From Allacma fusca (Eukaryota > Arthropoda > Collembola > Symphypleona > Sminthuridae): a DNA stretch of 64,000 nucleotides. Every line of letters starts with the position of its first letter. Position 1 is the first letter of the stretch. Positions 4,190-61,659 of the stretch are shown here, in pieces. The notes under the pieces were generated by a model. It did not search any database. It was not told the origin of the DNA and saw only the letters and a program-made list of their open reading frames with translations. The translations under genes were made by a program, and so were the position numbers. The stretch lies in NCBI GenBank assembly GCA_947179485.1, contig OX359247.1:32960801-33024800 (forward strand), read 5' to 3'.

Positions 4190-5085
4190 CAAGTTGGCAG
4201 AGCTATGCAAAATACTTGCTCTAAGATTATAAAATACAAAATAACATACTTAAAGTAAAATATAGAAAATACAAAGTAAAATACCTCGGGTTATATTACT
4301 AAAATACAAATAAAAATACAATATGGTCGGTAATTTAAAATACTCATTACAAAATACTGTATTTTAAATACAATACTTTTCTTAAAATATCCCAATAATG
4401 CTCAATATTTTCAGTTTCTGGGACTCAAGCAGCTTTAAAAAGCAACATTTTAAAACAATTAGATAACTAATCACCTCAAGGACTGCATATAAGACTTGTG
4501 TAGTAACAAGTGATTCAACGTTTGTTGAATTGGTTACTCCATTAATTATAATTACATTGACTAACCATAATCAGTTATTTTGATTGTTTCTTAAGTAATG
4601 TAGATTATTATTAGGATGGTATTTTTAGCATCCGAGTTAGTATCCGAACATTAAATTGAGTTTCTTCGGCAGATCTTAAATATCGTTGTAAGCATGTGCG
4701 CTTAGTCTATTTTCCCTATTTAGTGGCGATATTTAATATTGAATATCGAGAACTTGAACATGTTTGATGTATCTAGTAAAAAGGATTCATCCCTACGTGT
4801 TACTGCATTGCTAAAATGGAATTCTCACCGATATTGAACATCATGCAAACTACAAACAGTGTCAAAGTTGTAATCATGGTGGTGAAAAGTATTTTGAGCC
4901 AAATGCTTTATTCGAAATACATTTTCCATACCCCTGAAAGTAAGGAAATACAAAATCTTTTGTACTTAGAGGCCCTTAAAATACTAAGTACAAAATACCT
5001 GCCCACTGCTTGCTAACTTTAAAATACAAAATACTTTATGGTTTGCAAATATGTATTTGAAAATACTGTATTTATGTATACTCCC
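4190..5085. repeat. paired AAAATAC arrays, possible hAT-type element
   Basis: Clustered copies of AAAATAC or ACAAAATAC occupy about 4205-4390, and the same word or its complement recurs at 4970-5080, with unique sequence between. The left cluster starts at CAGAGCTATG, which resembles the CAGAGCTG terminus of the element at 48610. The right end lacks a matching terminus and no target duplication was found, so this may be a decayed or composite non-autonomous hAT. The open frames inside look fortuitous. Confidence 0.4.
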
Positions 5086-5258: not shown

Positions 5259-5627
5259 TCGTCGCTGAAGAGGCAAAATGGACTAAATGCAATTTCGACT
5301 TTTTCCTTAAAGGCAAAACGGAATAGTTGCAAGCTTTCCTGAAAGCAAAATGGTCTACATGCCTTTTTCCTTAAAGGCAAAACGGAATAGTTGCTAGCTT
5401 TCCTGAAAGCAAAATGAACTACAAGCAGTTTTCACTAAAAGCAAAATGGTCTACATGCGTGTATACTTTCATAATGGCAATTCTGCTTTAATACGAAATT
5501 GTAAGTAGACCATATTGCTTTTAAACCTTGATGCATCTATTCCATTTTGCATTTAGTAAAACTGCATGTAGACCATTTTGATTTTAATCGAAAATGCATG
5601 TATTCCATTTTGCCTCTTCAGCGACGA
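5259..5627. mobile_element. 369-bp MITE with TA target duplication
   Basis: The ends are inverted repeats starting TCGTCGCTGAAGAGGC on both strands and agreeing over about 25 bases. Both sides are flanked by TA (5257-5258 and 5628-5629), the target duplication of Tc1/mariner-type elements. Inside the left half, a block containing GGCAAAACGGAATAGTTGC is directly repeated about 60 bases apart, and related GCAAAATG words are scattered through the rest. There is no transposase, so this is a non-autonomous element; its autonomous partner is not in the window. Confidence 0.75.
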
Positions 5628-17034: not shown

Positions 17035-17478
17035 GATGAACAATAGAGAACTGGAATACTTCCCAAAAAATTAATAGGAAGAAATTACACTGCACTGGTA
17101 CGTAATTAAAATGATTTTGTAGCAATTACTAATTTACTAGAACACCTTAAATTTTTTAAAATTAATAGTTCCGGAGTTAGCAATTGGTAACGACAACTGA
17201 ACACACAAATTAGACTTGGGACACTTCAGGTGAATATTGAATATGAAGACTCTTTTTAGTAGCTCCACTGAAAATATCTTACTTCATCTAAATATGAGAG
17301 TACCAGAAGAGAAGAGCTGTGATCGTGTGATGTGATCTGACTACATTAATACTTCGGTGTGTTGTGTTGTAAGTTGTAATGCTTATACACACGGTCTATA
17401 GAACAGCACATCTAAAACCTCAAAGTTGTAGCTGATTTCGTCAGAAGTTCAAACTTTACCTTTTACCGCTCGTTTGAG

Positions 17479-18803
17479 CATACGGCAAAGGTGCTAAACT
17501 GATTTTGCCTATCCTACATCCTACCTATACATTTAGTTTATGAGGGACCTTCCTTCTCTCCTATTTGTGCAATTGTAGGGCCTATAGCCTATATCCTTCC
17601 CTACAAGTTACAAGTAGGCATTTGCGGCTGCCTACATTTCTGCCTATATAGGGATACGGAAAATGTTATCCCCTTCCTACATGTGACCCTATACTGCAGA
17701 ATTAAATTATAGGTCATCCCTCATATGAAACAATTAATCAGCAAACACTCGCAATTGTTTGTTACAATGTATCATATATTTAAAGAAACTGATTTTGAGT
17801 ACTTCTTCAAAATTAATGTTACTCATGCATTATGTGAAACCTCGTATTGATCGGGCCTATTGCACGTTACTGTAAGCCATCGTGCAATCACATGTACGTT
17901 ATGTATGGATGTTATTTTAAATGGGAAATCTCACATGTACCTGCAGTAGCCTGATATTCCAACGTTTAAAAATCGTTATGGTTTGCATTGAGATAAGACT
18001 TCCATAATGTGACAACAGTTATGTACATATATACATCCTACATATTTGCCTTCATACAAGCGTGTTCTCGTGCTGCCTACCAGGATAGACCAGTCTTAGA
18101 CTGATGCTGAAGGACTGACTGCAACATTGAGTGACTGACTGATGACTGACTGAGACTGCGACTGATAAATCTAACTACAGCTTAAGACTTTGACTGACTT
18201 AGACTTATTTCTGGTTCAGCGGGACTGACTGAGACTGAGACGAACGCTTAAACCAATGTAGAAATCAAGAAAATCATAGAGCATACGTACTGTATCTAGC
18301 GGAGTATTGAAAATATTGGAGATTTTAGTAGTATTTTACAAAAGAAGATTCCAGGTCATCAATCGTATTAAAATGCAGCACACCAAAATTACAAAAAATA
18401 GGTATTTTTGAAACTTTCACGCTGCCCTCTGTGTCTTATTTCATTGGCTCTGATAATGACTGGGACTGACTGGGACTTATTTCATTGACTCTGATAATGA
18501 CTGGGACTGACTGGGACTCTTAGGAAACGGCAAACAGACTTATGGACTGACTGACTGATCAGAAACTTAAGACTGATTTAGACTTGGACTGAAAAAGGTA
18601 GAGACTGGTGGATCCTGCGTGCCTACATATTTGCCTATATGACCGCGTGTATGCAGGCGTGCATTTCCTATTTATAGGCATTTTTTCTGCAAAAACCAGT
18701 GCACCCTATTTTTCCTATAATTTTTTCTGAAAATAGCTCGCACCCTACAAATAGGCCTACAAGTAGGCCTACATGTAGGATAGGCTAGCATCTTTGGCAT
18801 ACG
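17479..18803. mobile_element. CCTACA-word inverted-repeat element (host of a nested insertion)
   Basis: Outer ends are imperfect inverted repeats: CATACGGCAAAGGTGCTA on the left, and the complement of the right end reads CGTATGCCAAAGATGCTA. Both are followed by GCCTATCCTACAT. Inside each end are many copies of CCTACA, CCTATA or TAGG-type words (17510-17700 and 18610-18785). No target duplication could be identified, so exact ends are approximate. The middle is split by the element at 18081-18617. No transposase is present. Confidence 0.6.
18081..18617. mobile_element. nested GACTGA-word element, hAT-like
   Basis: The left end reads CAGGATAGACCAGTCT and the complement of the right end reads CAGGATCCACCAGTCT, 14 of 16 matching. 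Flanking sequences CTGCCTAC and GTGCCTAC agree at 7 of 8 positions if one extra base is allowed at the right end, which suggests an 8-bp hAT-type duplication. Sub-terminal sequence is packed with GACTGA, ACTGACTG and their variants. A block of about 45 bases around 18430-18520 containing ATTTCATTG is tandemly duplicated. It lies inside the CCTACA-word element, so it is the younger of the two. Confidence 0.6.
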
Positions 18804-19834
18804 GGATATCCCCAAGACCCCAGCTCCAATGCAACTCGTCTTACAATTTCATTTCATGTAGAGTCATGGGGTAACGTGGTACATGTATGGACTAGTTGTA
18901 GGCTGGATGCAGTAATAAAGTTATCTAATACAAGGGAAGTAAAATATATTTCCGTTGACCTAATATATGATTTCTAATTAATTTCTGGAACTTTTTGTGT
19001 AATCGAATGAGATGGTACTTCTGAAACTAGTCTGTCACTATGACTGTCTGTATATATTTGGCTGTTTGTTTTAGACTATGTGATGGGATGATACCTGCAT
19101 ATTAGAGTACACGCCACACGGACATACTGTAGACTTGATTAAATTTTCGTCACTAAAATACTTGGGAATCTCTAAATTAAATTAGTGATAGGAATTAAAC
19201 ATTGGGAAAATAAATACATCCTAGCCCCAGCCTCAGGATATTTAATGTTTACGATCGGGACTGGAGAACGTGTTGAGAATCGGGGCTCGTGCATAAAAAC
19301 GGAATAAATTGTTTTGAGTGTTTAACATAAATATCAGCTAAATGTCATGCTACTCCAAGCCTCAAGCGCCAGCACAATACTTTGAAAACAGTTTTCAATT
19401 GAATAGTGGTATGGTATGTGTCTGTACAGAACAGACAATCATAACTTCTGACTCGTTAGTTTAGGAAATCTAGTGTTTCAGTGCTTAAGATAATTAGGGT
19501 GTGGCGATGGACAGCTGAAGACAAATATGAATAATTAAAATTTTTGTTGATTAATTGACAAAAAATTGAGTAACTTCAATGACAATATGGTACAATGGTA
19601 CTGAACATTTATTGAATCTTTAATTGATAATTATTAAAAAACATCAACTTTATAGAAGTAAATTCGGGTTTCAAATGATAAAAGAGCGCTGGAAATGAAA
19701 TAAAATCGGAAGTCAAAAAAATTACTTAAGTTGGTATCTAATAATCGTAAGTTACAAATATTTATATGGTTAAGTGTTAGCCTATGTTCCTAACAATGTT
19801 TAAAAAACTAAGGAATCCACGATCAAAATTGGGC
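18804..19834. other. no recognised gene; SSRP1 downstream region
   Basis: Spacer between the nested elements and the SSRP1 stop codon. An AATAAA on the minus strand near 19606-19612 could serve as the SSRP1 polyadenylation signal. Nothing else was identified. Confidence 0.4.
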
Positions 19835-27800: not shown

Positions 27801-27898
27801 AAGAGGAGCTTGCTAAAATCCGACCAAAGATCCCAACTGTCGTTTGCGCTGAGTATATTTACCAGTGTGGTAGACGATTTAAAGTCATCGTTGATTAA
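24803..27898 (+). CDS. Cys/Pro-rich repeat protein with Tyr-Asn-Gly repeats and coiled coil
   Basis: I do not recognise an orthologue. Exons are tentatively 24803-24816, 24937-25622, 25710-25860 and 25987-27898 (about 920 residues). The first exon is 14 nt with a consensus GTAAGT donor, but its acceptor is weak. Order: an acidic N terminus without signal peptide; a Lys/Cys region; five full and one partial 27-residue repeats (about 198-345) with YYYEVGYNxGxNxSN and a trailing SND; a Cys block (about 345-461) of 9-residue CCPQCCAPP units then seven CCNP units; an acidic/Ser stretch; a second Cys cluster (about 565-605); and a Lys/Glu coiled coil (about 743-905). CNPC-type repeats recall sperm outer-dense-fibre proteins, so a disulfide-linked structural protein is plausible but inferred. 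AATAAA follows near 27984. Confidence 0.7.
25514..26169 (+). repeat. 27-residue tandem protein repeats across three exons
   Basis: Five complete 27-residue units and a partial sixth run in register through three exons of the Cys-rich gene. The shared pattern is aromatic-Y-Y/H-E-x-G-Y-N-x-G-x-N-x-S/A-N, then a charged stretch, Y, and N-D. Both introns fall within the GYN part of a unit but at different codon positions. The units are diverged at DNA level, so the duplication is older than the Cys block next to it. Confidence 0.8.
26170..26517 (+). repeat. 27-bp and 12-bp coding tandem repeats (Cys-Pro)
   Basis: About eight copies of a 27-bp unit encoding CCPQCCAPP or close variants are followed by seven copies of a 12-bp unit (TGTTGTAATCCT) encoding CCNP. 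Adjacent copies are nearly identical at DNA level, which points to recent slippage or unequal exchange. The array also keeps long reading frames open on the antisense strand; these are by-products. Confidence 0.85.
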
Positions 27899-28495
27899 AA
27901 AAATTTACTCTTTAATTACCTGAAACAGTTGTGTTACTCTCCTGAATTCACATGTCTCTGGCGAGATCTCTTTCCTACAAACACAATAAAATAAAACTAA
28001 TAAACTATTTCCTGTACGCTACTTTCATAATTTTCTTAAAATTATAGCTATAGATAGATAGACAACCCTTTAGTTCGATTTTCCAATGCTGGAGTTTATA
28101 TACATAGATCGTATTTAAGAAAACACGGACCCACAATCTACAATCAGTAAACTTGAAGCAAAGCTTAATAAAGTGATTCAGGAAGGGACTACTCCAAGCT
28201 AGACTAGTGAGTGTTCGAGGGATGCCTGTTCAGTGCTTTCCATGGTTTTATTGTTAGCATGCACAAAAGGCTTTAGCCGTTTCACATTCATACAGTACAC
28301 ACCTCTGCCAGCACCAGCTGTTCGAGGTAAAGCGGCAACCCTACGTGTGTTTATAGCCAATGTGTATGTAATGTCAGATATTTTGAATACTATTTTGAAA
28401 ACCTCTGAACGTCTGAACTAACAGTAGTAATTTAACGACCGAAATCGCTCTGCGGTACCTGTTGCTTTACTCACCTGACCTGGAAGAGTGGCAGA

Positions 28496-33027: not shown

Positions 33028-36000
33028 TTTATACTTGGTTGAAATATTTTAAAAATTCAATAATAAAAAGACGGCGGTATTGGTTCGTCAGGCGTCGATT
33101 GTCACAAATGTCTGCTGAAATGTCACAGGGACCTACTGGTCTGGACCATGACTTAAGGAGTGGTTGGCATCTCATATCTGACCTTTATGCATAATCTTAT
33201 AGATACTTGAATTTGGTTCTATTTGGTAATTATTATAAATAAACGCAAAATAGCATCTGCATGGTGAATCCCCTTGGAAGACTTTAGATTCCATTGTCGC
33301 CCTTGTGTATGCTTGTAATTGCATTTGAGCTGGTACATGCAGACAGACATTATGCATGTTATTGTATACGCCTGAGAATTTGGCACAAGACGTATGTAAC
33401 CTCATGTAGAAGTTGATATACTCAACATTATAATTTCTTATTATGGCACTTCTGATGTACAGTAAATGGTGAGAAAATGACAATGAGTGAAGCGAACCAT
33501 TTTAAAAGCATAGGATTCCGGCTTTTTGTTTATTGTGTTTTGCATTTGATAGAAAATTTGTCTCTCACATTTATCCCGATTGTACTGATATTTGAGACTG
33601 CAGGGAATATGTTTGACAGTGCACAAACTGTGTAATCGTCAATTTTTCCCTCAAAGTTAAAGCGTTTCACTTCACGAATTTCCGCATTTCATATTTCGTT
33701 GCACTATACTGCATATATTCGTCATTTTAAGGTATGCATGCAACAAAAGCATTCATGGAAGGACTGATGCATTTACAAGATAGTGATAAGATACAAGAAT
33801 TGTGCATAATTGTAAGTTTGGAGGCTTCCTTATACCCCCTTACCCTCTCTACTACATGTCATATACATACATACTGGGATAAATGAGATGAGAGCAGAGT
33901 ATATAGTAGATATCACATTTCTTTACTACAAATTGTAAGTACCCTCATTTTGGGGAATTCGTACAATCATGTCTTGCTCAAACTCCAATTTCCAGTTGCA
34001 GTGACAGAATATTAAATGTAGTCAGAAGCAAAGTAAGTATATCACATACCTGTATTTATTGTTTAAACTCTTACATGGATGTGCACTGTGCAGCAGTTAC
34101 TGCAAGTGAGTTAAACTTTGCGTATATACATACACATGCATGTATGTACATACGCTCACGATGATGGGATTTCTACACACATTCATTATTAATTATATAT
34201 ATATAATTACCTATATATCTTTATTACCAAATTAATGCATGCAGGATATTTTCTGTGCAAAATAGTTTGTTTTTTTATATCAAAAATCATTTGAGTCATA
34301 GGTGTAATCCAGTACGTATGTATGTAGGTATGTATAGTATGTACGTCTTTTGGTGAAAAACGTTGATTCGCGAATATCATCAAGTGTCATTTGAGACTTG
34401 AGAGTGTAGGCGAATGTAGTATTATGTACATAGATACATAAACCATGTAAATATAATAATAATAAGAAACTTGAACGTAACGATGAGCAGCGAAATATAA
34501 TGCTTGCTTGTACTCGTACTGTAGTATCCTAGATATAGATAGAGATTATATACACACATTCTAATCGTGAATAATAGAAATGAGCGTAAACACTGGTTTC
34601 AGGAGGCTATATAATTAAGCATGGCTTTAAGGATCTGAGGTACTTTTAAACCAACACATTGAATGCTGATGTATTACTAATCTAACGTGACATCATTCAC
34701 CATGCCATGATCCGGATGCCCACATTTGGACAAGCACCGAGCTAGAAGTTTAGAACAATCTTCCCCAAGTTTTTGATTCAGTCATCATTTTCCTCTGAGG
34801 AGGATTCTCAACACATCATTCAAGAGAGGGTTGATTCTGTGTGGACAAAAAAGTGACCCAGTAATAGTATCTTTAGTGATCTTATACTCTTTAAAAATAA
34901 CACTCCTGAAAGCACGTACAGTACTGTATATGTGTATTTATGTATGAGCACAGCATGACATTACACTGGGGAAATGGACGAGAACACTATAAAAAATGAT
35001 CACATTCCAACATATAATATTTCACAGCTTTTTTATGCCTCATGTCATGACAGTAATTTCGCAGACACAACTTGAGCTAACGAATTTTATGCAAAGAAAC
35101 GACGACTACATGCAGACATTTTATGTATCTTCAATTGACGGAGATTGAAAGGAGCTTCAAGCGACTGTATGCAACTAACCATTTGGAATACAGATCTAGT
35201 TCAGTTAATCATTTCAATATGAAAAACTATGTATTTACAGATGGGTTTTGACATGTAGCGTAAAAAGTGAAGCACTTCCAGCCCTAAAGTGGTACTTATA
35301 TACGCTCATGTAAAAAAGTAAACACACATTTGTACTCACATTAGAACAGCTTTGGATGAATATTATAGCCTTTTATGTTTTTGATAGGAATGACAAAACT
35401 CAGTCAATGTCCCACTGGAATGGTACATTGATGCTAAGGCATTACGATGGAGTACTTCAGCAATAAAATTTGGAAAGTTTTTAATCTTTTTAACTGCAGG
35501 AATTTTTCTTGATCCCCTGTGAACAAGAAGATGCTGAAATTGCTAAATGACAGAACCACTGTGTACTCATCAAGTTGTAGGAAATTGAGTGTCTGTACGC
35601 CTTGATGTTACAGTACGACAATAATTAAAAAATCAGTGACACATTGTACTAATTTTTCAATATTGCAGAATATAGAGCATATTACTTCCTTTTCTCTCAT
35701 TATTTGATGTCAGCACAACACACAGACGTAATAACTGCTCGGGAAGGCTGACATAACACACAATAACATGTGCTTTCTTTGGCAGAACGAAGGGAATCGC
35801 CAACTATTATCGCACCCTACCCCATTTTGACCGCTCAGGTTATTGACAGCGTCATTAATTCTAACCACATCACCTTTTACAGCAGATATTTCAAGGACCC
35901 ACATTTTCCCATTTTTGTCATAAATACTATACAACTACATATGCCGATTTCTCATGTACTTGTAGGGATTATTTTGCAAACCGTATATGTGTAACGTTTA

Positions 36001-47406: not shown

Positions 47407-48609
47407 TGTAACCTACAACTACAAATAATACTCTTACTGACGTTATTGTGCGGAAAGGAAATGTGTGAAGTTCAATTCAGTAGTGTAGGTTAAATGATTC
47501 CAGAAGTTGAATATTCTGTCATTACATTTTATCTAAAACTTTAATTGTCAGCTCTTTATGCCAAATTATCTCAATGCTAGCGCGTGGGGAAAATAGTCCA
47601 TTTGATATTTGTAGGTTTTAATGATGTCGAAGACATAATACTAGTCAAGTGCTACCTGCATTGTTCTGCGTGCTTATGTCATATGTAATTGCAAGATTAT
47701 TTATTCGGAAAAGATAATTTCTCCAGAAAAGTTAGAAATCTATTATTGAAGATATTTGACCTCGTTTTGAGTAGGCGGTTTTGTGACGATTAATTACTAC
47801 AACAATAATTCGGCCAGACTGTAATGTGTAATAATTAATAATTAGTAATTGCTCAGGGGATTAACAGGCATTTGGTTATCTTCTTCATCTTAATTTTAGT
47901 TCATTGCTTGCTCTATTGAAAACTATAAACCTAGAGCAAAGTTAGGATTTTTAGCTAAAGGTCAAATTTGAGGAGTTTTAAAATATTTCCCCTATTTTTC
48001 CGGGGACCTATAACATTTGGGCATGTCAGAAAGCCGTGTAATCTCCACAGTGTTGCTACGATTTTTGTTTTGAATTTTGATTAGAAAACAGTTAATATAA
48101 AAATTTGCAACTTGCCTTCTTTTGCTGGCATCATTATTTCGAACATTTTCGAGCAAGTAAAGTGAAATAAATTTTGACAGAGAAAACAAATAATTTGCTG
48201 GAAAATAGGGATATTGAATGTTTTTTATTCTTATTTTTTATTTCAGTTCATAGGAAGAGCATTTGGGGCACAAACTCTTGTTGAAATTATCTGCTATATA
48301 GCCACCCATTATAGCAAGATTACCTTCAAAATACGGCCTGAAGTCGTCTAATTGATTTGCATTGATAATAATTTTTTTTCGACCAAATCCAAAAATTCCC
48401 ATTTCTTATGGGAATTAACATGGAAAATTCCAGCTAAGACAGGGGGAGGGGAATCCCTACAAATCATGTTGGAACATTTAAATTTGGTGACCTCTAGTGG
48501 GTGAACCTGGTTGAACTGGCATGAACTTTAGTGCGGGTTTGGACATTGGGTCTGACTGAGTAATTACTAATAGCTCACAACATTTTATGCCTATGTCAAT
48601 CTACATAAC
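47407..48609. other. no recognised gene; acid phosphatase upstream region
   Basis: AT-rich region upstream of the acid phosphatase start codon. No conserved exon was found. It ends with the 8-base target copy TACATAAC that borders the element at 48610. Confidence 0.4.
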
Positions 48610-49976
48610 CAGAGCTGCGTTCAAGTCAAGTTATTTTAAACAACTTGACTTGAACTTGACTTGAACTTGACTTGAACTTGACTTGAACTTTAAAAATTGT
48701 CTAAACAAGGTATCCGTACTTGTACTTGATGAATCAAGTTTTTCAAGCAACTTGAGTATTCAAGTACATGCTTTTCAAGTACATTTTATAGAACTTGAAC
48801 TTGATGATAACTTGACGTTCAAGTTGCATACATAACTGAACGTGAACTTGAACTTGATTGTTCAAGTTTTTTTTTTGTGCATGAATAAACAATGCTTGAA
48901 ATTTTGTTCGCAATTGTTATAGCTGATGATGGTTAGGCCATAATTATGATAAACTAAACGGCATGCGGATGATTTTCTTTACTTTAAAAGTGCTAGAAAG
49001 TTTAAAATATTTGATCAAATAATTGCAGATTTTGTGTTCTAATTTACTAATGTCCACAATTTAGAGGGTAGCAATCGTATTATTGGCCTGTTCACATTAG
49101 TGTTGCACTAATCTGGTGAGTGTAACCAGCAGTTATATTCATGAATATTTGTCGTCGTTAATGTTGCCTAACCAATATTGATTTATAAGATTGTTTGCTG
49201 TTCATCTGATGCTTAATATTAGCAGAACTTATTCTTACAGGCAGGTGTGGATTATTAAAATAATTTTTACCATGGCCCAACCGTCAAAATAGTTTGAGTT
49301 TTTACACATGTAATGTGAGGGCCTTAGTCAACATTTTTTTACCCTGGCCCTAAATGTTTTAACCTGGCCAGGGTGGGCCACCCCGTAAATCCAGCCCTGC
49401 TTAAAGGGAATAATAAATTGCTCTTAAACTTCTTCTTAGCTTCAGAACAGGTGAAGAGAACAATAACTTCATTTTTATAATGGAACAAGATGCTCGACTA
49501 TCAAGAACATCCTCATAAAATAATAAGTCAGAACTTTTAATTATTCAAAGTATGTAAACAGGACACCAGAATTATTCTCGATGTGGACCACTGGGCATCG
49601 CGGAGGAGAATTTTTATGTCGGTGGAATAAAAACAAACACAAAGATGTCATTATTATAATGATTGACGCCCAATATTATTTTTAGTTGGATGCAGGAGAT
49701 AAGCTTGATTTCAGTAACAAAAACTCAAGTTATACTCAAGTTTTATTCAAGTACTTCCATTCAGTGTACTTGAACTTGACTTGATTTTGAAATCAAGTAA
49801 TAAATTATTAACTTGGACTTGATCGAACTTGAACTTGAAAATTCAAGTTAAAATTATAAGTTCACTTGAACTTGATGTTCAAGTTTCAAGTTACAAAATT
49901 GTCTGCACTTGACTTGACTTGAACTTGATACGCACTTGAACTATTCAAGTTGTACTTGAACTTGAACGCAGCTCTG
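48610..49976. mobile_element. non-autonomous hAT element with ACTTGA arrays
   Basis: Ends are inverted repeats CAGAGCTGCGTTCAAGT, conforming to the hAT rule Y-A-R-N-G at the first five bases. Identical 8-bp duplications TACATAAC lie at 48602-48609 and 49977-49984. About 230 bases inside each end consist mostly of ACTTGA, CAAGTT and close variants in both orientations, while the 850-base core is unique and AT-rich without a transposase frame. It is 1367 bp long. The perfect duplication suggests a fairly recent insertion mobilised by a transposase encoded elsewhere. Confidence 0.85.
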
Positions 49977-50010
49977 TACATAACGCGAGGCTTGCTGGTT
50001 AGGTCACTTG

Positions 50011-50654
50011 TATAGCTCCTTATTGAGTGATTACCTTGCGGAACCGTACTCGAACTCGTACTCGAAATCGAAGCATCGAGTATGGACTCCAATCCAAGGT
50101 ACTCGTACTCGCCACATATACGAGTACTCAGGAAAATACTTGAAATAAGCGACCGAGTTCCAGTTCAGAACCCGAACTTGTTTCATACTCGCGAGTACGG
50201 AACTGTAAATACCGAAATCCCGTACTCGTACTCGTGCCGTGACTCGAGTCTTCATACTCGAGTATTTAATAATAACAAGACCACAATTGAACAGTAATTT
50301 TTTTTAGATTCATTTAATTTCTCACAAATAATTCCCTCAAAATTTTAAATTGAACATGCAGTGCCTTCGTCTCTTTACTGGAAATTCAAAAGTTTGCAAC
50401 ACTTGTGTGCACGTGTACGCGTACTCGTATATTGAGCATGTGGTACTCGAACTCGAACTCGATAACCCTTATGAGTATTTTTATCGGACTCGTACTCGTT
50501 TGATACTCGTACTCGTAAGTATGTGAAAAATCGTTACCCGTACTCGAAACCCATTTCAAGTATCGAGTATTCACAAAAATTTGACCGTACTCGACTCGAA
50601 CTCGTACTCGTACTCGATACTCGCCGGTATACTCAAACTCGATAAGGAGCTATA
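50011..50654. mobile_element. non-autonomous element with ACTCG arrays, 8-bp duplication
   Basis: Ends are inverted repeats TATAGCTCCTTATTGAGT on the left and TATAGCTCCTTATCGAGT (complement) on the right, 17 of 18 matching. Identical 8-bp duplications GTCACTTG lie at 50003-50010 and 50655-50662. Both sides are filled with ACTCG, GTACTCG and CGAACTCG words around a short AT-rich core (644 bp in total). The 8-bp duplication and layout suggest hAT, although the first five bases fit its rule less well. A P-type element also makes 8-bp duplications and cannot be excluded. Confidence 0.75.
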
Positions 50655-50662
50655 GTCACTTG

Positions 50663-52666
50663 TATCAATGCATTACGGTTCGTTCATTTTATGGAAGTAG
50701 TATTCATTCTGCTATTTATTCTGCTAAATGCCGATACATTAGAAATGACAAAAATTGTCAAATAAAAAAATGTAAACTACAATTTACTTTTATGACTTCA
50801 CTTTTTGTTTGGTTCCTTTTAAAAAAGGGTTACATAATAAAATAAACGGGTGCATCTATAGAATAAAAACATGTACTCATGCTACACAAGCTCAATACAT
50901 TCATAGTACTGCAGAGCTATCTGTATTAGCAATATGGCTAATGAAAGAATAGGGAGACCCATGGTTATAATATAAAGATGTGTAATTATGTATATCATTT
51001 TGATACCTATAGGTATGTATTCGTGTGCACACACAATTTTTTGGTACATACTGTGAAAATAGCAAGAGAGATTTTTCTCAGCTGTGAATTTTTAGTTTTA
51101 TTTTATTTGCAATTGCATCGGAATAGTTATCAGTATGTATCTACATATTTGCATGTTGATTCGCTCCTTTGCAGTAGATCCGATATGTATAACCATGTTT
51201 GAATGATAGCAAATCCTATATTTAATACAGTACTCTCGGTATGAAGGGAATCATTTGTCAGAGCATTATCTCATTAAGTAAACAAAAATTTTTTATTTCC
51301 AGATCAGATGACAAGTACTTAGTACACAAGTAATTACTGAAAATAATATGTGTTAATAAATATAAGTTTAACATTTAAGAATTTAGTGACTCATTCGACT
51401 TGGAATGATTAAATATATTAAATATGCATATATAATGCGAATATTCATGGACTGGTTCTGTCCGAGCATGATTACCAGCATTTCAACATAAATCCACACA
51501 CCGATCATCATCCTCATGTTTTGCAAACTCCAAATAATGGCTTCAAATTCTAGAAGCGGTTTAATTTTCAGTACAATAATATCTTACTATTCGAGACCCC
51601 CTTTAAATAACTTTTACTCTTTATAAAGAGTCAACAGTATTTGGTCACATGTTTCCTTTCTGTAAATTCCCTGTCCATAACTGTTAAAAGTTTGACATGT
51701 ACTGACGCCGAGATTTTTGCTAGCGGATATTACACATACATAGACAAAGTTATGCTTAACTGGTACGTAAGTGGGTGACAATTACATCGGCGGTGATAAC
51801 TGTTGGGTACAAGGGGCAAAAATTAAGCAATGCAACATCGAAGCTGATTAACTTTATTAGCGAACAAACCCAAACATTTTATTTTGGACATGTTGGGAAT
51901 GAAAGCACTGTTGCATTTAACAACCTTCAACCTGCATTTCTGCACTCTCAAACTGTTAAAAAATAGAAGTGACTTGTTGAGTATTAACATTCGAGAATAA
52001 AATATTACGTCAAATGATTTATCAAAGAATTCCAACATATCCTATAATCAACAAAAAAATGCATAGCAATGTTTTTGTCGACATACTATCTCATCTAACT
52101 GCGAATAATGCCTTGAAATACGTATAGAAGGCGTGTGAGTTTTACCACAATACAATCTAACTGTAGCAGACTCAAGTGATTTTGTATAATTATTTGGGAT
52201 GGTTTCCGTTTACCACAATATTCAAAATCAATTTTTTTTCTTTTCGGGGTGCTATCGAAACCAAATTGCACTACTATTATCAGACTTTGAAATGATGATC
52301 AGCGTAGTTATATGTACATACGTACAGAAAAACTGATCTGAATGGTCGATGAATTAAAGGTGTCCGAATCATCGTGGGATTGAGCAACCTGTACAAGTTA
52401 CACCCATCAACTTGGCTAAGTAATTGTACGAAGTTGGCTAAAGCATACAGCTAGTTTAACTCAATCCAATTTGTCGTTTACTTCCTTACCCATGGTAATT
52501 TCCAGCTAAATAATTGTGAATCTTTGATAAACTGTTAAACACTCCTGTTGTTGGGGCCACTAACCTTTTGAGGTAATAAATTCATTTCAGTTTATCTCTG
52601 AGCATTAGACTTATATATAACTGAACCACAATAACTTAAATTCTTTCTTGTAAATAGCATTTATGC
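50663..52666. other. no recognised gene
   Basis: AT-rich sequence. A 63-codon frame at 51775-51966 has a plausible amino-acid composition but no start context, splice sites or family that I could support. Confidence 0.4.
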
Positions 52667-52758
52667 TTACATTAAGGTTACATTGAGTTTAGCGACAACT
52701 CCTTGAAATTTAGAATCAATCGAATTTTTCACCTTTACAATTTCAGTAACCACACCTA

Positions 52759-54052
52759 CAGGGGCGAGGCAACTTCCTTGGACGGGGACGGCTTGCACCT
52801 TAACTTTTAGCGCGCTTTATTTACAGTTACATAATTTTGTAATTATGTTGATAATAGTACTAGCAATAAGTGTACTGAATATCAACATGCTACTCCCACC
52901 GATGCCTCCACAAATAGCTCCGGAAGTTGAAGGTATCAGATTAGACGTTTCCGGGAAAGGTTTGACCCCGTGTCAGGTCGAACATGAATTTAAAAATCAA
53001 AACATTAGTGTCTCCAATCGAACAGTGTTCAGGGTAGTTAATTCAGTGGGGAAAAGACGGTTGGCTCAAACACTGGGACTTCCACGACCAAAAAACAACT
53101 ACCCTAGAAAAGTCCGAAATTCGGTATTATTACGGGAAGTGGATATATTGACCTCTAAGGTTAATCCTTTGTCCCAAAGAGCAATTGTCAGGAAACTACA
53201 CGTTTCTCAGAGGACTGTGAATCGGATTATTCACCAGGATCTGAAAGCGAAGACTAAAATAAGACCAGAGTTCACAAGCTGATCGACAAACATAAACGGA
53301 ATAGGCAGACCAACTCCCGGAAGCTGTACAAGGAGCACCTGTCAGGGGAAAAATCGGATTTTGTGGTAAATCTTGACGAAACATACTTCTTTCTCAGTGA
53401 CTGCAATGCCGATCGCCGAATTTATTTTCTAAGGCAGGTACGGTCACTGAGACACCCGTGATCCAGAGGAAGGAGAGGTTCGACTCGAAGATCATGGTCG
53501 TAGGAGCGATAACTGGAAGGGGAGTACTGCCTTTAATTAAAGTTGCTCCAAACGTTAAAGTCAGTGCTGCCTACTATGTTGACCGCGTTTTGAGGCCCTT
53601 ACTCAAAAAGGAAGTGCCACCAATTTATGGAGAGGACACATCAAAGGTCTTCGTACGTAACGACGCGGCAAGCTCCTGCACGGCCGGAATTACCCGGGCA
53701 TATTCAGAAGACCTCCACTGGAAAACTGGTATAACCTTAATTTAGAATAAGGAAATACCAGTAAGGTCACAGGACACCAGCCCTCTGAACTTTTTTTGGA
53801 TTCGTCGCTTTAATACAGACCCTTGGAAAAACAAAAGTATCTTCCATGTCGGGACCTTGGAAACATTTAATCCGATACCTTCAACTTCCGGAGCTATTTG
53901 TGAAGGCATCGGTTGGAGTAGCACGTTGATATTCAGTACACTTATTGCTAGTACTATTATCAACATAATTACAAAATTATGTAACTGTAAATAAAGCGCG
54001 CTAAAAGTTAAGGTGCAATCCGTCCCCGTCCAAGGAAGTTGCCTCGGCCCTG
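52759..54052 (+). mobile_element. dead Tc1/mariner-type element with 194-bp inverted repeats
   Basis: The 1294-bp element is bounded by TA on both sides (52757-52758 and 54053-54054). Its inverted repeats begin CAGGG-CGAGGCAACTTCC and extend 194 bases each (52759-52952 and 53859-54052) with few mismatches. The first transposase codons lie inside the left repeat, so the right repeat carries an antisense copy of them. The internal transposase is truncated, and the right half of a normal 1.6-2 kb element is missing between the coding remnant and the right repeat. The insertion sits in a coding exon of the minus-strand gene around it. Confidence 0.85.
52845..53745 (+). pseudogene. Tc1/mariner transposase remnant
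   Basis: Two reading-frame changes separate three blocks. The first (52845-53280) holds paired helix-turn-helix DNA-binding regions, with LSQRAIVRKLHVSQRTVNRI as the clearer one. The second carries the first catalytic aspartate in VVNLDETYF. The third (about 53458-53745) carries the second aspartate in VFVRNDAASSC, as in the DD(E/D) family. The segment that should hold the third acidic residue is absent, replaced by sequence leading straight into the right inverted repeat. The copy therefore cannot encode an active enzyme. The subfamily cannot be fixed without that third residue. Confidence 0.75.
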
Positions 54053-54332
54053 TAATTGGACGATATCCAGTAAAATGTGAAACATATGCACCAAATTCGT
54101 TGGGTAATTCTGATAATTTTTAAAATAATTTTCAACCTTCCGTATCTTATGCAACTTTATTGACTTAAAAGTAATTGATTGACCCGGTTTTGAAAATGTT
54201 GCCCTGAATTTACCGCATTGTTGTGCATCATCATTTCTATCTGCATTGATAGCAGTTCCTACAATACCATGTGGTAGAAATTTCACTTGAATTTGGTATA
54301 TGCTGGGACTCACTATATTAGCTTCCTTATAT

Positions 54333-55460
54333 ACAGATGTAGGTTGTTAATGCTGGACAAATTAGAGATTTATTCGTGGATTGAGTTTCAACCTTAATTT
54401 CATTCTACAAAATACCAACGACACACACACAAGCACACTCTACGCTCATCTCTCATTCTTATATAATTATGTATTACATCGACAAGATTAATTCGTGTGA
54501 AGCAGAGTAACCAACAGAATTCGCGAGTAACATTCTTTCAACAATACTCACTCCATACATGGTAGATCTCTCATACATAATTACACATGCAATTTCCAAC
54601 ACCTTGATTTCCAGAGGAAGACAAATGAAAATCTGAATTTTTTAATTAGTATGTGGATTCCACGAATTTAGCCATAAATGAAGTCGAAAAACTCCTTGAA
54701 CAAAATTTTCAAAATATTACACACAAATAAGCTATTATTTAATACTATTGAATTGGTCTTCTACAATTAACTCTTTGGTTTATTGATTTTGATTACCACA
54801 TATCACGACCTTTCCGCCTTTTTTAATACAAACTTGCTAAATGTAATTAATTTTTTCAACTTGTAATTTTTAGCATGAATGTAGTAAATTACTTATTGTT
54901 AGTCCAGGATTCTGGTCTATCACTTATTTGCAAATTTTAATGTTGCTGGAATTCATATTTTAAATCATTTCTATCAAATAAATAATTCTCATATACAAAT
55001 TGTGGAGCCAAAGATAGATACCCATAATTTAAAACTCCGTAACATAGGGTTTCGGTGTTCATAAAATAAAATGTAGTTTATTTACACTAAATCACATAGC
55101 CACTCGTATGTAAAACTGGTATAAGCATGTAATTACGTATCAGCTGATATTAAAATCATACGGAACAAAATGTCCGAAATCAGAATTTAAAAGGTAGTAG
55201 CTTTAAAAAACGTTTCAGAATATTATGCATGAAGCAAGTTCATTTTGTTTGTTGTTTTTTTATTGGAAATAATTTTCAAAATATTTGATAATTGTATATA
55301 TTCAAGATGTTTTAAATTTGGAATGCGTAACAAATAAACAGAATCCTGTAATACAGTTAAACAATCTCCCATTGTTTTAAGGCAATTAAGATTTTTAAGT
55401 ACGAAACAGTTCCAGTATGATAGTGAGGTTAGGTTGACATTTTAAGTATTTTCTTTTTAG
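54333..55460. other. spacer with possible undetected exons
   Basis: Lies between the split minus-strand gene and the first recognisable exon of the NB-ARC gene. Upstream exons of both genes may fall here. An open segment after a TTAATTAG acceptor near 54648 has a protein-like composition, but no donor was found for it. Confidence 0.35.
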
Positions 55461-55764
55461 AGAAAACAATCAGAATTCCCCGTTAAATAAAACACAAACG
55501 GAAAACGATATCAGTGTTGAGAGGAGGCAAAATGCAGAGGTAAGGTTTTTAAAACTTCATAAATTATAGAATTGTTGCTAACGCAGAAAATTGAGTAAAC
55601 TTATTAAACTTAAGTAATATATAACAATTTAGGCACCCCTGTCTTCTACTACCTCAGTTCCAATCTCTTTCGCCGGAAACATTGGCAAGGTCATAGCTCC
55701 AGCGGTGTTTAATGGTGGTATTAATACCTTGAATGTTCAAACCATACTTGCAGTTTTGACGCAA

Positions 55765-55990
55765 AGTTCAAATTCAGTTCAATTCACTTTAAAATAATTG
55801 GCGTGCCGTTCAGTTACGTTCAATTCACCGTGCCTAAAGATTGTAAGAGTTCAGTTCAATTCACTACGTACATTTCAGTCCTTAAGTTCAGTTCAGTTTA
55901 TCCTTGCCCGTAGTCGTTCACAGTTCAATTCAATTCATTGTACATGTTTCGGTCGTTAAGTTCAGTTCATTACCGTGTGAATTAGTTAAA
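55765..55990. repeat. left sub-terminal TTCAGT array of the hAT element
   Basis: Repeated TTCAGTTCAATTCA and shorter TTCAGT or TTCAATTC words occur about every 12-25 bases. Such sub-terminal motif clusters are transposase-binding sites in studied hAT elements such as Ac; the same role is inferred here. Confidence 0.7.
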
Positions 55991-56720
55991 GGCATTCATT
56001 GTATATTTTAATAGCGCTTACTTTAATTATGACAGTTGACTTTGAATTTACATGCACATACAGTATTTTTGTAAATTATCAGTCTTTGAACTAAAAAGTA
56101 AATGCAAACTTGAGTTTCGTCATATTTGATTTAAATTTGCATTCAACACACGTATCATTTTTGTATTACTATAAATAGGAGAAGTCTCTATACCGAATTA
56201 ATTTTTCAGTAGCAGGAAAACTTCAATTCGTACATTTAACTTTAAGAAAATTACCATTGTTTTTCTCCGTAGTATGAATTAGTCTAATGTTGCTGTTTCT
56301 GTTTATTATTATAAAATTTTTTTGAACTCCAACAACTAGAAATTACCAACGTTAGGTGCTCGGTAAAAATAAATATTACTATTAATTTTCAGAAATTTTC
56401 GTAGTTCGTAAGCCTGTATTCACATACTACGGTAACAATTTTGTTGCTTAAATATCCGTTGATTCCATCTTCAATCAATTTTGAAAATTATTCATATTTA
56501 TGTCGGAATTGAGAACGCCTAAATACTTGCAAAATTTTATTTTATTGTTCGTTAAATAACAACAGTTTAAATTTAAAGGAATCATTACTTATTTAACTGT
56601 AATGGTTCGGGGAGCACAAATAGCATAATAAAATTAGAAGCAAGAGCACTTATGAGAAACAAAATAATTTTTCATACTAGTATTCACCAACTGTTGATAA
56701 AAGGTCTGACTAAAGGTGTC

Positions 56721-56754
56721 CAAGTTTTCAAAATTCCGGAATTTTGAAAACTTG
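56721..56754. repeat. perfect 34-bp palindrome centred on TCCGGA
   Basis: A perfect self-complementary sequence with core AAAATTCCGGAATTTT lies about 50 bases past the transposase stop codon. Related palindromes recur at 57298-57317 (perfect, 20 bp), 57992-58007 (perfect, 16 bp), and near 58690, 59050 and 59701-59722 (imperfect). All are within the hAT element. Confidence 0.85.
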
Positions 56755-56802
56755 CAATTAAACATTTATTAAAAATAGCCGAAAACATATAAACGATAGG
56801 TT

Positions 56803-59695
56803 TTATAGTGTAACCTGTTTAGATTTGATCTCCTGAGCCCATTCCTTGTACAAAATGCACTCTTGCTGTCGCATGACCGTCATTCTTGATCTGACATATC
56901 TGGCAAGTGCCGAAAGTTCTGAAAAAAGTCTTTCAACACTTGCAGAAGTTGCAGGAATAGCCAGGTACAGCTTTGCCAGCCGAGCCAAATTAGGAAATTG
57001 TTTCTGGTGAGTCCTCCAAAAATCCAAGGGATCAGTAGCTGCCGAAATTTTCATTTCCAAATAGGTGTCTAATTCGGTTTTGGGCAACTTATTTCCATCA
57101 GCACTTGGTTGCTGCAGCTGTCGTTCCATTTTTTCAAAAATAGACAGATTGTGAATTTCCGTTTCCACAACCGGAGAAATCTGAAGCGTTTGTGGAATAG
57201 GAAGACGAAGCTGCTTGGTATTTGGGGATTCCAAGAACATTACTCCGGGAAAGAGCTTGCCCTGTAATAAATGACATGACTTAAAAAGAATCTGTACACA
57301 AAATTCCGGAATTTTGTTTGTACAAAACTTTGAACACACTGACGTCAGCCTACCTTGTAATTTGAAAATATTCAGCTTTTGCCGTTGATCACAAAGACAT
57401 GCTAGAATGTATGCGGGATTATTCATGAGTGGCGTAAATTTTACTTCCATTTGCTTCAAAAGTTGACATCGTAGATTGTCAAAATACTTCAGATTTATCA
57501 TATTCTGCAAATCTGAAGGAAAACAATTGCCGTGACAAGAAATGGGCTTTAATAATATCAAAGGCAATAGCTGATATAAATCCTACCTATAAACGCTTGA
57601 TAAACCTGCGGTATAATAAGTGACGAAGTAACGCCATCTGATTGAAGAACATCAGTCATAACACACATGGGCTTGATAACGCTAATTAATTCCTGCATTT
57701 GTTGTTTATGCTCCAAAGTGAGTAGTCCCGGATGTCGTTTCTTCTCATATGCATATTTTGCTTCGGTCATGGCTTTGTAAAGAAGGTGCTGCACTGCTTC
57801 GAAAATCGGGTCCTGCAATGTATAAAAATGGTTTAGTTTTTTATCCGAAAAAGCTCCAAAATTCGAATTTTTAGGAAATAAATAATGTGGTTGTTTGTTA
57901 GTAAGAATGGAATTTTTATGCTGATAGTAAACATTAATTGTATTTCAAATACGCAATTGAATATGTTACTTTGCTAGTATTCAACTATTTTAAAAATCCG
58001 GATTTTTGAAATAATTTTGTATCTACAACAAACCTCAATTAATCGGGAGAGAACATCATATATATAATTCCAGCGAGTTTCGGCATGTTTAACAAGTCCT
58101 TTACCTCCAGATTTTCTCAGTCTTGCTAGCCACAGTGACGAATTTCGAAAGAATTTGACAATCTTGTTCACAAATGCGATGAGTTGCGCACCTTTCCCCA
58201 TCAACTTAGCTACCTTTTTTCTCGATTTACAACCAACTTCCTTACCTGCCATTTCATTTTTCAAGGCATTTGTTACAACAAGCTGTAATGTATGGGCAAT
58301 GCAGGGAATGCGCTCCTTTTCTGGATCGACGTGGTGCAACACATCGTTTAATAACTTAGCCGACTCGTCGACACCATCAATTTCCCAGTTTATTTCTGAA
58401 TCGTAACCACCTTCAATGTCGGAAACTTCATCATTTGAATCATGGTTTGATTCCTCGTAACTATCCGAATCGACGTCGCTACTGATGTCTTCAATTGTTT
58501 CAAATTCCTGCCGAGCCGAAGAAGGTTGATTTCTGGTTGCAATTTCTGTATCCCAGCTTTCTTCGGACAACTTTTTGAACTCTTTCATGGCACTAATTAC
58601 ATTTGCCCCATTATCAGTCACAATGTATTTAATCTGTAAATCGACGATTGAAGCGAGTTATACTTTCAAGATATGCAATGTACACAAAAAACCGGATTTT
58701 TGAAACGTTGGATAATAAAGCTATTATAAATCCCATAATGCAAAGGTAAATTTTTGGCATACCTTGTGCCGTATTTTGTAATCCTGCAATGCTTTGGAAA
58801 TTAAATCGCAAATGTGAGTGCCTTCATGTTTCTCGTTTACTTCCAAAATTGAAATGGTTTTTCGCCTTAGGTTGAAATCCTTGTCAAGATAAAACAATTT
58901 GATCGCCAATACTCCATCTTTCCTGTGCGATGTCCAGAGATCAAAAGAAATCGTTGCTTCTTCAATGTCATTCAGTTCTGTCCTTAACTTTGGGACGATC
59001 TGTAAACCAACAATCAAAAAAAAGTTCAAAGACAGGAATTTTAACACAAATCCTGAATTTTGTTAACCAACCTCAGCTTGAACTAGTTTCGATAGCTTCG
59101 AAAGCATTGACTGTCGAGATTTCACCGTCAGAGGTGGATCCGCTATACGAATAATTTCTTTGAATTCATTTGTGTTCAGAACTTGAAACGAAGCTCGATT
59201 GCTTGCTAGAAAAGTCAGAATAGCTGAATCAAACCGTTTTTGTTTATGATCATCCCGGGATAGTTTCTTCACATTCGGTTTAGAAAATTTCAGGATCGAT
59301 GGTTGATTTTCGCTACGGTTAACGTCTGTTTTTACTGCTAGAAACACATCGTTGTGCTGGTTTTGCAAATGCCTCATGAGATTAGAGACTGATCCTTCAC
59401 TATAACTTCGTTCAGGTTTTTCATTGCATAGTTTGCATCTCACGACCACATTTTTTGACAGCTTTTCATTTTGTATTTTGTGCCCCACATAATTAAAGTA
59501 TTCACGAATATTACAAGGTAATTTAAAATTGTCTTTAACTTTTAGATCTGAGATAAGATTGTCCTTTTCTTTGTTGTTGTTTCCCCCCTTATTGCCTTGA
59601 GTTTTTAAATTGAAAACAGAAAACACATTTTGCTTTTCGGATTGTGATGCGGATTGTTCATTCACTGGTTTGTTTTTAATCCCATTTGCACTCAT
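56803..59695 (-). CDS. hAT-family transposase
   Basis: Five exons on the minus strand (59695-59072, 58999-58763, 58633-58034, 57812-57587, 57512-56803) join in frame to 798 residues. An N-terminal BED-type zinc finger has C87, C90, H109 and H114 (CKLC to HLQNQH). The central RNase H-like domain shows SFDLWTSHRKDG, VTDNGANVISAMKEF and CIAHTLQL, with an acidic insert between the last two. The C-terminal dimerisation region contains DPLDFWRTHQKQFPNLARLAK and SASVERLFS. The frame is open throughout the last exon, even across an internal stretch that looks like a 92-nt intron; splicing that stretch would break the frame, so it is read as coding. The enzyme would cut and paste this element and possibly related non-autonomous ones. 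No damage was seen. Confidence 0.88.
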
Positions 59696-59984
59696 TTTGA
59701 GACAAAACTCCGGAATTTTGTCTGCTCACACAATATTTAACACTAATTTTATTTAACGAATATTCTGGGGGTGATATGTGATCCATCCGACGTTACCAAA
59801 CCTTTAGTCGTCTTTAGCAAAAATTTCCCACTTACAAAATTCTGATTGACAAAGAATTTCTGCTAGCAGCGTGCTAGCTTTTAAAATTACAATTTGCGGA
59901 AGGTCTGGTCAAACAATTAATTGTAAGTGATAGATGGCATTTGTATTGCGTTCACGAATGTGCAAGTTTATATTCAAACTGTGA

Positions 59985-60180
59985 CCATTTAGTTCAATTC
60001 AGTTCAGTTCGGGTTACATGAACGTACGGCGAACGTTCGTTCGCATTCATAATAGACCTTCTTGAGTTCAGTTCAAATTTATTCAATGAAAATTTTGGAG
60101 TTTGCTAGTTCGTTCAAGTTCGTTCAATGAGAATGAAAATACGGGCTAGTTCAGTTCAGTTCACGCCTTTGCGAACTGAA
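59985..60180. repeat. right sub-terminal TTCAGT array of the hAT element
   Basis: Clustered GTTCAGTTCAG and CGTTCGTTC-type words mirror the left array. They run up to the terminal inverted repeat beside the NB-ARC coding segment. Confidence 0.7.
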
Positions 60181-61659
60181 CGACTGCAAGCATGGTTCAA
60201 ACAATTTTAACACCTGTCCCACGTCAGGACCGCATTGAATTCAATGTTCACGAAAGCATTCCTTCGTTTTTTGGAAGAGAAGCATTCATCACGAAGATGC
60301 ATGAGTACCTCTGGAGGACTGAAACGAAATATAATGAAGAACGCTCCATACGATCCCAAACCATAGTCATTTGTGGGCTAGGGGGCGTCGGAAAAACTCA
60401 AGTGGTCAGAAAATACATTCAAAAGTACAAGTCATCCTACGGACATGTGCTATGGATCAACGCTGAAAACTATACCGTAGCAACAAACAACTTTTTTCAA
60501 TTAGCTAGACAAATACCACTGGATATAATCCAAACTGGGGGACAAAAATCCAACGAGATGATCATGGAAGAAATTTATGATTTTGTGTGCAGCAAATTTG
60601 CACTGATCATTTTTGACAACGTAGAATCATTCATGACCGATGGTGGGAATAATGGCCTATATCGGTTGCTTCCAAAAGCTGTCAAAACCGGATGGAAAGT
60701 TCCCGCAATAATAGTTACAACAAGATATCGGGTCTGGGATGATTTTCAAACTGAAGAACTAGCCGTCTTTAATTTGAGTGAAAGCTTGTCATTTCTTTCT
60801 TGGCTGGAGTTCAGTGATTGTGAAGACAGTCTTGATTTGCTTGATGAGGTGGTAGAAATCTGCCAGGGTTTGCCACTCGTTTTGCAGCAAGCAGTAACAT
60901 TCATTAGAAACAAGCGAAAACATCGCGTCGGTCTTGGTGCACAACTGTACACACTACAGGACTTTATAATTGACGTTGCCAATAAAAGGAAAAAATGTAT
61001 AAAGACCAGACCAAACTGAGAACATTTAAACGTGTTTGCGCTATTTGAAATGACGTTTGCACAAATTGGATCTATGAAACACGGAGAGTTGTCCCTTCAA
61101 TGGGACAACATTACGTCCAATGCTTGGACGTAATGGCGGTACTTAACCCGGACAATATACAAACAGTGCTTATTAAGACAATTTTCAGTCATGCGGAAGC
61201 TAAGCTGGCAAAAGTTCTGAATTTATTACATACATACAATTTAATACGCATATGTGGTGATTATTCCCAAATGCACCGTATGATCCAGGCCGCCAAAATG
61301 GAGTCAAGTATTTTGAAGGGTTCAAAATTATCTTATACAAACAAAAACTTTGAACAAATCGTGGATTCGGTTCAGGCATTTATTCAAAAGTTAAGCACGA
61401 ATACTAATGACGTACATGAAATTCTACACAACGTTATACGAATTCACGACCTAGGTCCTACGATTTGCACACAACAATTCGTGAGATTTCAAACCATTCT
61501 TGCAAACAAATTGCACGATGTAGGAAGCTATAGCAATGAGGTACATATTCGCAGAACTGCCTTAAGAACGGCTGAAATTCAGTGGGGAGTCGACAGTTCC
61601 GTCGTCATTGACGTTAGGGAGAACCTCAGTGCGGCTCTACGAGATTAAGGAAGCTATGA

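What the first reader, a model, noticed from the sequence alone, without database searches (positions are those of the whole stretch)
48610..60194. A shared 'one word per family' architecture in 8-bp-duplication transposons
Three elements with exact 8-bp target duplications (48610-49976, 50011-50654, 55743-60194) and one with a near match (18081-18617) share a layout: short inverted termini, then a few hundred bases at each end filled with one short word. The words are ACTTGA, ACTCG, TTCAGT and GACTGA. The AAAATAC (4190-5085) and CCTACA (17479-18803) elements look alike. In known hAT elements sub-terminal words bind transposase. The inference is that related transposases have diverged in the word they read, so each array could label which non-autonomous family a given transposase moves.
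Basis: partly seen in the sequence, partly recalled or inferred. Interest (0 to 1): 0.78.

Follow-up and report, generated by a model that had tools for sequence, protein, structure and literature searches.

The report
Jumping genes with family-specific address words

Summary
Elements at 48610-49976, 50011-50654 and 55743-60194 have exact 8-bp duplications; 18081-18617 has 7/8 plus an empty site in a paralogous copy. The CCTACA element is really 17486-18796, with exact duplication GCATACGG. One-word arrays fill both ends and are rare inside. 55743-60194 is a hAT transposon (BED finger, hAT dimerisation domain). Elsewhere in the genome, 27 of 39 sampled hAT families showed a 3' array beyond all 96 null windows; two arrays proved to be neighbours', leaving 25. 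Word similarity follows transposase relatedness (Mantel r=0.44 first run, 0.44-0.51 corrected, p=0.0001) while adjacent DNA does not (p=0.53 or 0.09). Between the autonomous TTCAGT element and its short derivatives, words mismatch at 4 of 116 positions, spacers at 118 of 479. Two families have identical 12-nt tips but unrelated words. Not shown: binding, or which transposase moves the ACTTGA, ACTCG, GACTGA, CCTACA and AAAATAC elements. Family-specific subterminal repeats are known for hATs (Ac, Hermes, Herves); the many-family comparison within one genome is the added part.

The parts
48610..49976 (.). Non-autonomous hAT-type element, ACTTGA family; tips CAGAGCTGCGTTCAAGT, duplication TACATAAC
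48610..48879 (.). Left ACTTGA array (22 copies, both strands)
49707..49976 (.). Right ACTTGA array (23 copies, both strands)
50011..50654 (.). Non-autonomous element, ACTCG family; tips TATAGCTCCTTAT, duplication GTCACTTG; two further genomic copies 100% identical
55743..60194 (-). hAT element with transposase gene, TTCAGT family; tips CATACTTGCAGT/CATGCTTGCAGT, duplication GTTCAAAC
59063..59725 (-). Transposase open frame with BED zinc finger (PF02892, E 2.7e-7)
56803..57582 (-). Transposase open frame with hAT dimerisation region (PF05699, E 3.3e-15; Hermes in PDB E 1.2e-4)
55743..56049 (.). Array end of the TTCAGT element shared with its short derivatives (AGTTCA/TTCAGT words)
59867..60194 (.). 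Other array end of the TTCAGT element shared with its short derivatives
18081..18617 (.). Non-autonomous element, GACTGA family, duplication 7/8, nested in the CCTACA element; empty site in a paralog
17486..18796 (.). CCTACA/CCTATA element (corrected ends), tips CAAAGRTGCTA, exact duplication GCATACGG at 17478-17485 and 18797-18804
4198..5073 (.). AAAATAC element, left tip CAGAGCTATGCAAAATAC, right tip not found in this copy

Best explanation
These are hAT-superfamily DNA transposons and their non-autonomous derivatives. Each family fills the inner side of both ends with many copies of one 5-7 bp word. The word is most likely the docking site for the N-terminal BED finger(s) of that family's transposase: many copies in either orientation gather the transposase oligomer at the two ends, and the short tips are then cut. 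Because the word carries much of the identity, it is kept by selection while spacers drift, and it changes stepwise as the transposase diverges; a short element keeping tips plus word stays mobile, one that loses the word does not. Shown here: arrays, target duplications, hAT domains, word conservation over spacers, clade-word correlation with a flank control. Inferred: binding by BED, cooperativity, word as main specificity determinant.
For: Arrays at both ends and rare inside. 27 of 39 hAT families beyond all 96 null windows, 25 after two arrays were traced to neighbouring elements. Complete autonomous elements with the same word at both ends: L091+L032 (CGGATA 14 and 15, one inside), L094+L016 (CCTTC(A)), window TTCAGT. 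Word versus spacer mismatches, autonomous TTCAGT versus consensus of 18 derivatives: 3/68 versus 60/222 and 1/48 versus 58/257; none of 281 and 302 circular shifts as low. The same direction in all 11 directed comparisons, drawn from six pairs of the L032 clade, and in all four ACTTGA end comparisons of the window copy with L069 and L070. Mantel 0.436, p 0.0001, n=27; flank control p 0.53 or 0.089 against array p 0.0001, n=21. L030 and L033: identical 12-nt tips, word cosine 0.00. From the literature: Hermes BED binds subterminal AAGT and Herves transposase binds C(G/A)ATTCAT.
Against: 12 of 39 families show no array over the threshold in the DNA fetched, 14 after the two corrections (some ends may lie beyond the fetched 0.45-1.15 kb, untested). 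An earlier, uncleaned null of 101 windows reached -14.9 in a coding tandem repeat and -10.5 in the window's own AAAATAC element; only 12 of 39 families exceed -14.9, one of them L078, whose array is a neighbour's. L101 of the L032 clade has no array at the expected place. Sister families with unlike words: L087/L081 69% identical, cosine 0.05; L013/L030 68%, 0.02. L027's word, one letter from that of its sister L034, is itself below the threshold (-6.57). The left array of L094+L016 is weak (16 of 300 shuffles). TIR tips follow the clade at least as well as words (r 0.585 versus 0.443). Tree forks mostly weak (14 of 26 open). [quoted passage not shown]
Confidence: 0.8

Rival explanations
1. 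The arrays are neutral by-products: slippage and gene conversion spread short tandem units near element ends, and relatives share words only by descent.
For: Some arrays are partly tandem (11-bp units at 48642-48690; 29-bp units in L015).
Against: Words show about 2- to 11-fold lower mismatch rates than the spacers between them (about 4- to 11-fold in the TTCAGT family); DNA between gene and array carries no significant clade signal; words occur on both strands and at both ends.
Confidence: 0.08
2. The words are host or element regulatory sites (transcription-factor or silencing sites) rather than transposase sites.
For: One of the two ends of an autonomous element must flank its promoter (inference, no call); regulatory use cannot be excluded here.
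Against: Short derivatives keep the words at both ends; the word changes with the transposase clade inside one host genome, which a shared host factor would not predict.
Confidence: 0.07
3. Terminal inverted repeats carry the specificity and words only raise affinity generally.
For: TIR similarity correlates with clade at r 0.585, n=20.
Against: Identical 12-nt tips with unrelated words exist (L030/L033), and 6 of the 20 tips compared begin CAGNGATG.
Confidence: 0.15
4. The TTCAGT element is a P element (8-bp palindrome-like targets, CATG tips).
For: Duplications lean to GTTTAAAC over the 20 distinct elements counted; P elements as THAP transposons with 8-bp duplications are recalled.
Against: BED finger and hAT dimerisation domain; no THAP row in the Pfam scans of its open frames; Hermes is the PDB match.
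Confidence: 0.01

Closest known systems
maize Ac/Ds (hAT)
   Same: 8-bp duplications, short TIRs, multiple subterminal AAACGG hexamers bound cooperatively by the transposase and thought to give specificity; heterogeneous Ds elements share tips and repeats (PMC3260210, abstract and passages)
   Different: one family with one word; here many families with different words in one genome
Herves of Anopheles (hAT)
   Same: transposase binds a repeated subterminal motif C(G/A)ATTCAT at both ends; the abstract states that the bound regions differ between hATs, ensuring specificity (PMC3143072, abstract, passages and Discussion)
   Different: a single element with several motif copies; no test along a transposase phylogeny in what I read
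Hermes of Musca (hAT)
   Same: BED domains bind subterminal AAGT repeats; closest solved structure to the window transposase (paper PMC10368747, passages only)
   Different: 4-bp motif, arrangement asymmetric between the two ends in the passages seen
Galileo (P superfamily)
   Same: several transposase binding sites in long ends (PMC3688188, listing and abstract start only)
   Different: THAP domain, other superfamily

Membership tests
hAT superfamily (TTCAGT element 55743-60194) | 8-bp target duplication | tested here: met
   GTTCAAAC both sides; among 29 family loci scanned 21 gave an end pair, 18 of 21 with 8/8 and 3 with 7/8
hAT superfamily (TTCAGT element 55743-60194) | C-terminal hAT dimerisation region | tested here: met
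   PF05699 E 3.3e-15
hAT superfamily (TTCAGT element 55743-60194) | N-terminal BED zinc finger | tested here: met
   PF02892 E 2.7e-7
hAT superfamily (TTCAGT element 55743-60194) | DDE catalytic residues in an interrupted RNase-H fold | not tested
   exons were read apart; no structure made
hAT superfamily (ACTTGA, ACTCG, GACTGA, CCTACA elements) | 8-bp duplication and short inverted tips | tested here: met
   (GACTGA 7/8)
hAT superfamily (ACTTGA, ACTCG, GACTGA, CCTACA elements) | moved by, or derived from, a hAT transposase | tested here: inconclusive
   no owner found; best word matches weak (L089 0.45 for ACTTGA, L026 0.22 for ACTCG, L089 0.23 for GACTGA, L010 0.35 for CCTACA)
AAAATAC element as hAT | 8-bp duplication | tested here: not met
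   none at this copy, right tip not found
P superfamily (TTCAGT element) | THAP domain | tested here: not met
   no THAP row in the Pfam scans of its open frames

The most novel reading that the evidence does not exclude
One genome holds a radiating recognition code: some two dozen or more hAT transposase families each read a private subterminal word, words step by one or two letters along the transposase tree (CGGATA to CGGATCG to CGGTTCG; AGTTCA to AATTCA), and the word rather than the terminal inverted repeat decides which non-autonomous elements a transposase mobilises, so the families are mutually orthogonal.
Probability: 0.4. Interest if true: 0.72.

Novelty: new member of a known kind. 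Interest (0 to 1): 0.5.

Why it matters
hAT transposases with their own subterminal motifs are known one element at a time. A genome with about 25 array-bearing families among 39 sampled, and conservation of words over spacers, gives a natural data set in which BED-finger specificity can be read against its target across graded divergence, and a way to assign orphan non-autonomous elements to transposases by word as well as by tip. It may also supply orthogonal transposon tools.

Tried and rejected
Long ACTTGA copies as autonomous elements: L069 and L070 (3.5 and 2.6 kb with flanks) showed no hAT-like open frame of 70 aa or more that I could recognise by eye. The ACTTGA array beside hAT L018 was not that element's: it is a separate element (ACTTGA-2, 1281 bp, duplication CATATAGC). 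Exact ACTCG tips: the 100 sites listed of 377 all lie on contig C1; most pair 600-830 bp apart, one pair is 1351 bp and one about 18.5 kb; no pair has the length of an autonomous element. Exact ACTTGA tips: 100 of 812 sites listed, all on C1. Coordinates of listed ACTTGA, ACTCG and GACTGA copies against the 150 PF05699 sites gave three pairs within 8 kb. Two involve full-length short copies; the third is the window's own ACTCG element, 6.9 kb from the window's TTCAGT transposase domain. None was read as an owner. P-element reading of the TTCAGT element rejected on domains.

Corrections: L023's first word (AATCGAA) lay largely past its element end and was recut; its own region scores only -4.78. 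L078's array begins at a neighbour's tip and was dropped. Both versions of the Mantel test are given. The null leaves out the window's element and tandem-repeat stretches (4190-5700, 17000-19000, 26000-28000, 48000-51000, 55000 on), and its windows are 900 bp against up to 1150 bp of hAT 3' DNA; the uncleaned null is. An earlier count said 17 of 20 exact duplications; the right count is 18 of 21 rows.

Literature: (8 searches of the open PMC library; 20 of 23 papers listed, 12 of 80, none found) listed no paper that, by title and abstract start, tests words against a hAT transposase tree; subscription papers are not held. PMC2872659 (passages) concerns TTAA-type coral elements and was set aside.

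Full report
What was checked. Three have exact 8-bp duplications, the fourth 7 of 8. Genome copies fix the ends: the GACTGA element is 18081-18617 and is nested in the CCTACA element, and a copy of the latter on C10 shows the empty site with a 7-bp overlap. The CCTACA element is 17486-18796 with exact duplication GCATACGG. The AAAATAC copy begins at 4198, the stretch shared with other copies ends at 5073, and no duplication was found.

More than chance. In the outer 270 bp of each end (268 for GACTGA) the commonest 6-mer is the same on both sides for the ACTTGA, ACTCG (as CGAGTA), TTCAGT (as AGTTCA), GACTGA and AAAATAC (as AAATAC) elements, and 0 of 300 dinucleotide-preserving shuffles reach those counts; the CCTACA element has related commonest words (CCTATA left, CCTACA right; 0 and 2 of 300). 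ACTTGA occurs 22 and 23 times in the ends and not at all in the 827-bp middle.

What carries the transposase. Of the six, the one in which I found a transposase is 55743-60194: BED finger (59063-59725) and hAT dimerisation region (56803-57582), minus strand; nearest solved structures are Hermes. Four copies were listed, all on contig C10, one of them split by an insert. Its two ends, at 71-91% identity, also occur in many short elements, 890-941 bp long in the 19 rows measured, on several contigs.

Words under selection. The window element was aligned with the consensus of 18 distinct short elements. At one end (55743 on) words mismatch at 3 of 68 positions and spacers at 60 of 222; at the other 1 of 48 and 58 of 257. 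Sliding the word mask round the sequence never gave so low a value (0 of 281, 0 of 302). Swapping the reference gives the same picture (6/80 versus 57/210; 2/52 versus 57/253; 0 of 292 and 0 of 304 shifts). In the L032 clade all 11 directed comparisons, drawn from six pairs, point the same way (0 shifts as low in nine, 4 of 263 and 1 of 225 in the other two), but those alignments are only 58-71% identical and word matching itself helps align them. Four ACTTGA end comparisons between the window copy and L069 or L070 agree: words 0/105, 1/93, 0/129, 2/124; spacers 17/117, 8/117, 6/114, 7/112; shifts as low 0, 11, 6 and 3 of 233.

Other hAT families. PF05699 gave 150 scored sites of 860 candidates. 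I took 30 loci from the top, 20 more chosen to look distinct, nine ends of the L032 clade and five more ends of relatives. 59 loci with both domain and 3' DNA form 39 families at 88% domain identity. 27 of 39 have an array beyond the most extreme of 96 null windows; in two of these (L023, L078) the array later proved to belong wholly or largely to a neighbouring element, leaving 25. The null leaves out the window's own arrays and tandem repeats; an uncleaned null of 101 windows reached -14.9 in a coding tandem repeat, a value exceeded by 12 of 39 families (L078 among them). This is a chosen sample, not a census. Five further ends (L101, L102, L103, L105, L110) were left out of the count because no domain was fetched for them; L102, L103 and L105 have strong arrays, L101 and L110 do not. 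Two complete autonomous elements other than the window's were recovered with duplication and the same word at both ends: C9 (CGGATA, 3339 bp, duplication ATTGTACT, 16 of 16 tip bases) and C8 (CCTTC(A), 4206 bp, duplication CTTCCGCT); the left array of the latter is weak. For four others (L012, L024, L086, L087) the 5' end was not recovered.

Words and relatedness. In the L032 clade, transposases 47-100% identical to L032 over the matched parts of a 351-aa exon carry CGGATA, CGGATCG, TCGGAT or CGGTTCG. Over 27 families, domain identity and word-profile similarity correlate (Mantel r 0.436, p 0.0001; without the L032 clade 0.176, p 0.0073). With L023 recut: 0.473, and 0.274 (p 0.0006) without the L032 clade. 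With L078 also dropped: 0.509 (n=26); with L098 dropped too: 0.437 (n=25) and, without the L032 clade, 0.344 (p 0.0002, n=20). The DNA between gene and array, as control, gives r -0.011 (p 0.53) or 0.16 (p 0.089) where arrays give 0.38 or 0.436 (21 of 26 families with enough flank). The tree shows the same groups but most forks are weak. Unlike words between close relatives exist (L087/L081, L013/L030), so words also switch.

Tips versus words. Twelve-letter tips correlate with clade too (r 0.585, n=20), yet L030 and L033 have identical tips CAGAGATGCGCA and wholly different words. Those tips alone therefore cannot tell these two families apart.

Matching orphans to owners. Word profiles assign the TTCAGT short elements to L034 (0.93) and a nested 1748-bp element, taken as non-autonomous (C10:21717592-21719339, duplication ATTTCCAT), to L026 (0.87), in both cases with like tips. 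For the window's ACTTGA, ACTCG, GACTGA, CCTACA and AAAATAC elements the best scores are 0.45, 0.22, 0.23, 0.35 and 0.13: no owner claimed. ACTTGA-2 shares the word and general tip form with ACTTGA but differs in tip letters.

Comparison with what is known. Subterminal transposase-binding repeats are established for Ac (AAACGG; PMC3260210), Hermes (AAGT by BED; PMC10368747) and Herves (C(G/A)ATTCAT; PMC3143072), and the Herves abstract already says that the differing bound regions ensure specificity (passages, abstracts and one Discussion read). So the kind is known. A test of words against spacers or against a transposase tree did not show among the papers listed by my eight library searches.

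Limits. No binding or movement was measured. The transposase comparison rests on a domain of about 60-90 residues. 3' ends were read for 0.45-1.15 kb only, so families without arrays may be misses. That the nested 1748-bp element codes for nothing was not checked frame by frame. The host is unidentified.

Noticed in passing
55743-60194 and C10: All four listed copies of the autonomous TTCAGT element lie on one contig (C10), while its short derivatives lie on several contigs; local hopping or a young invasion could explain it.
   Followed up: partly
60192-60194: The last three bases of the TTCAGT element are ATG, in frame with the open frame of an NB-ARC gene that begins beside the insertion.
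   Followed up: no
L106, L108, L109: The words of this clade (GAATCGA / GATTCAATTCA) contain the core of the Herves binding motif C(G/A)ATTCAT; whether the transposases are related to Herves was not tested.
   Followed up: no
52817-53994: Long inverted repeat (14 of 14 tip bases at two nested places) with nearby open frames; the one scanned (52707-53282) has no Pfam match; probably another DNA transposon.
   Followed up: no
26187-26514: Cysteine-rich open frame 25913-27898 with 27-bp and 12-bp tandem repeats, which gives a word cluster unrelated to transposons.
   Followed up: no
50011-50654: Copies of the ACTCG element at C10:4462982 and C1:8139680 are 100% identical to it, pointing to recent movement although no transposase was found.
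   Followed up: partly
34044-34342: A cluster of ACATAC/GTATGT words without detected tips or duplication.
   Followed up: partly
L031 2474-3237: TTTGAG array of about 32-bp spacing starting directly at the 3' end of a CGAACTC-family hAT copy.
   Followed up: no
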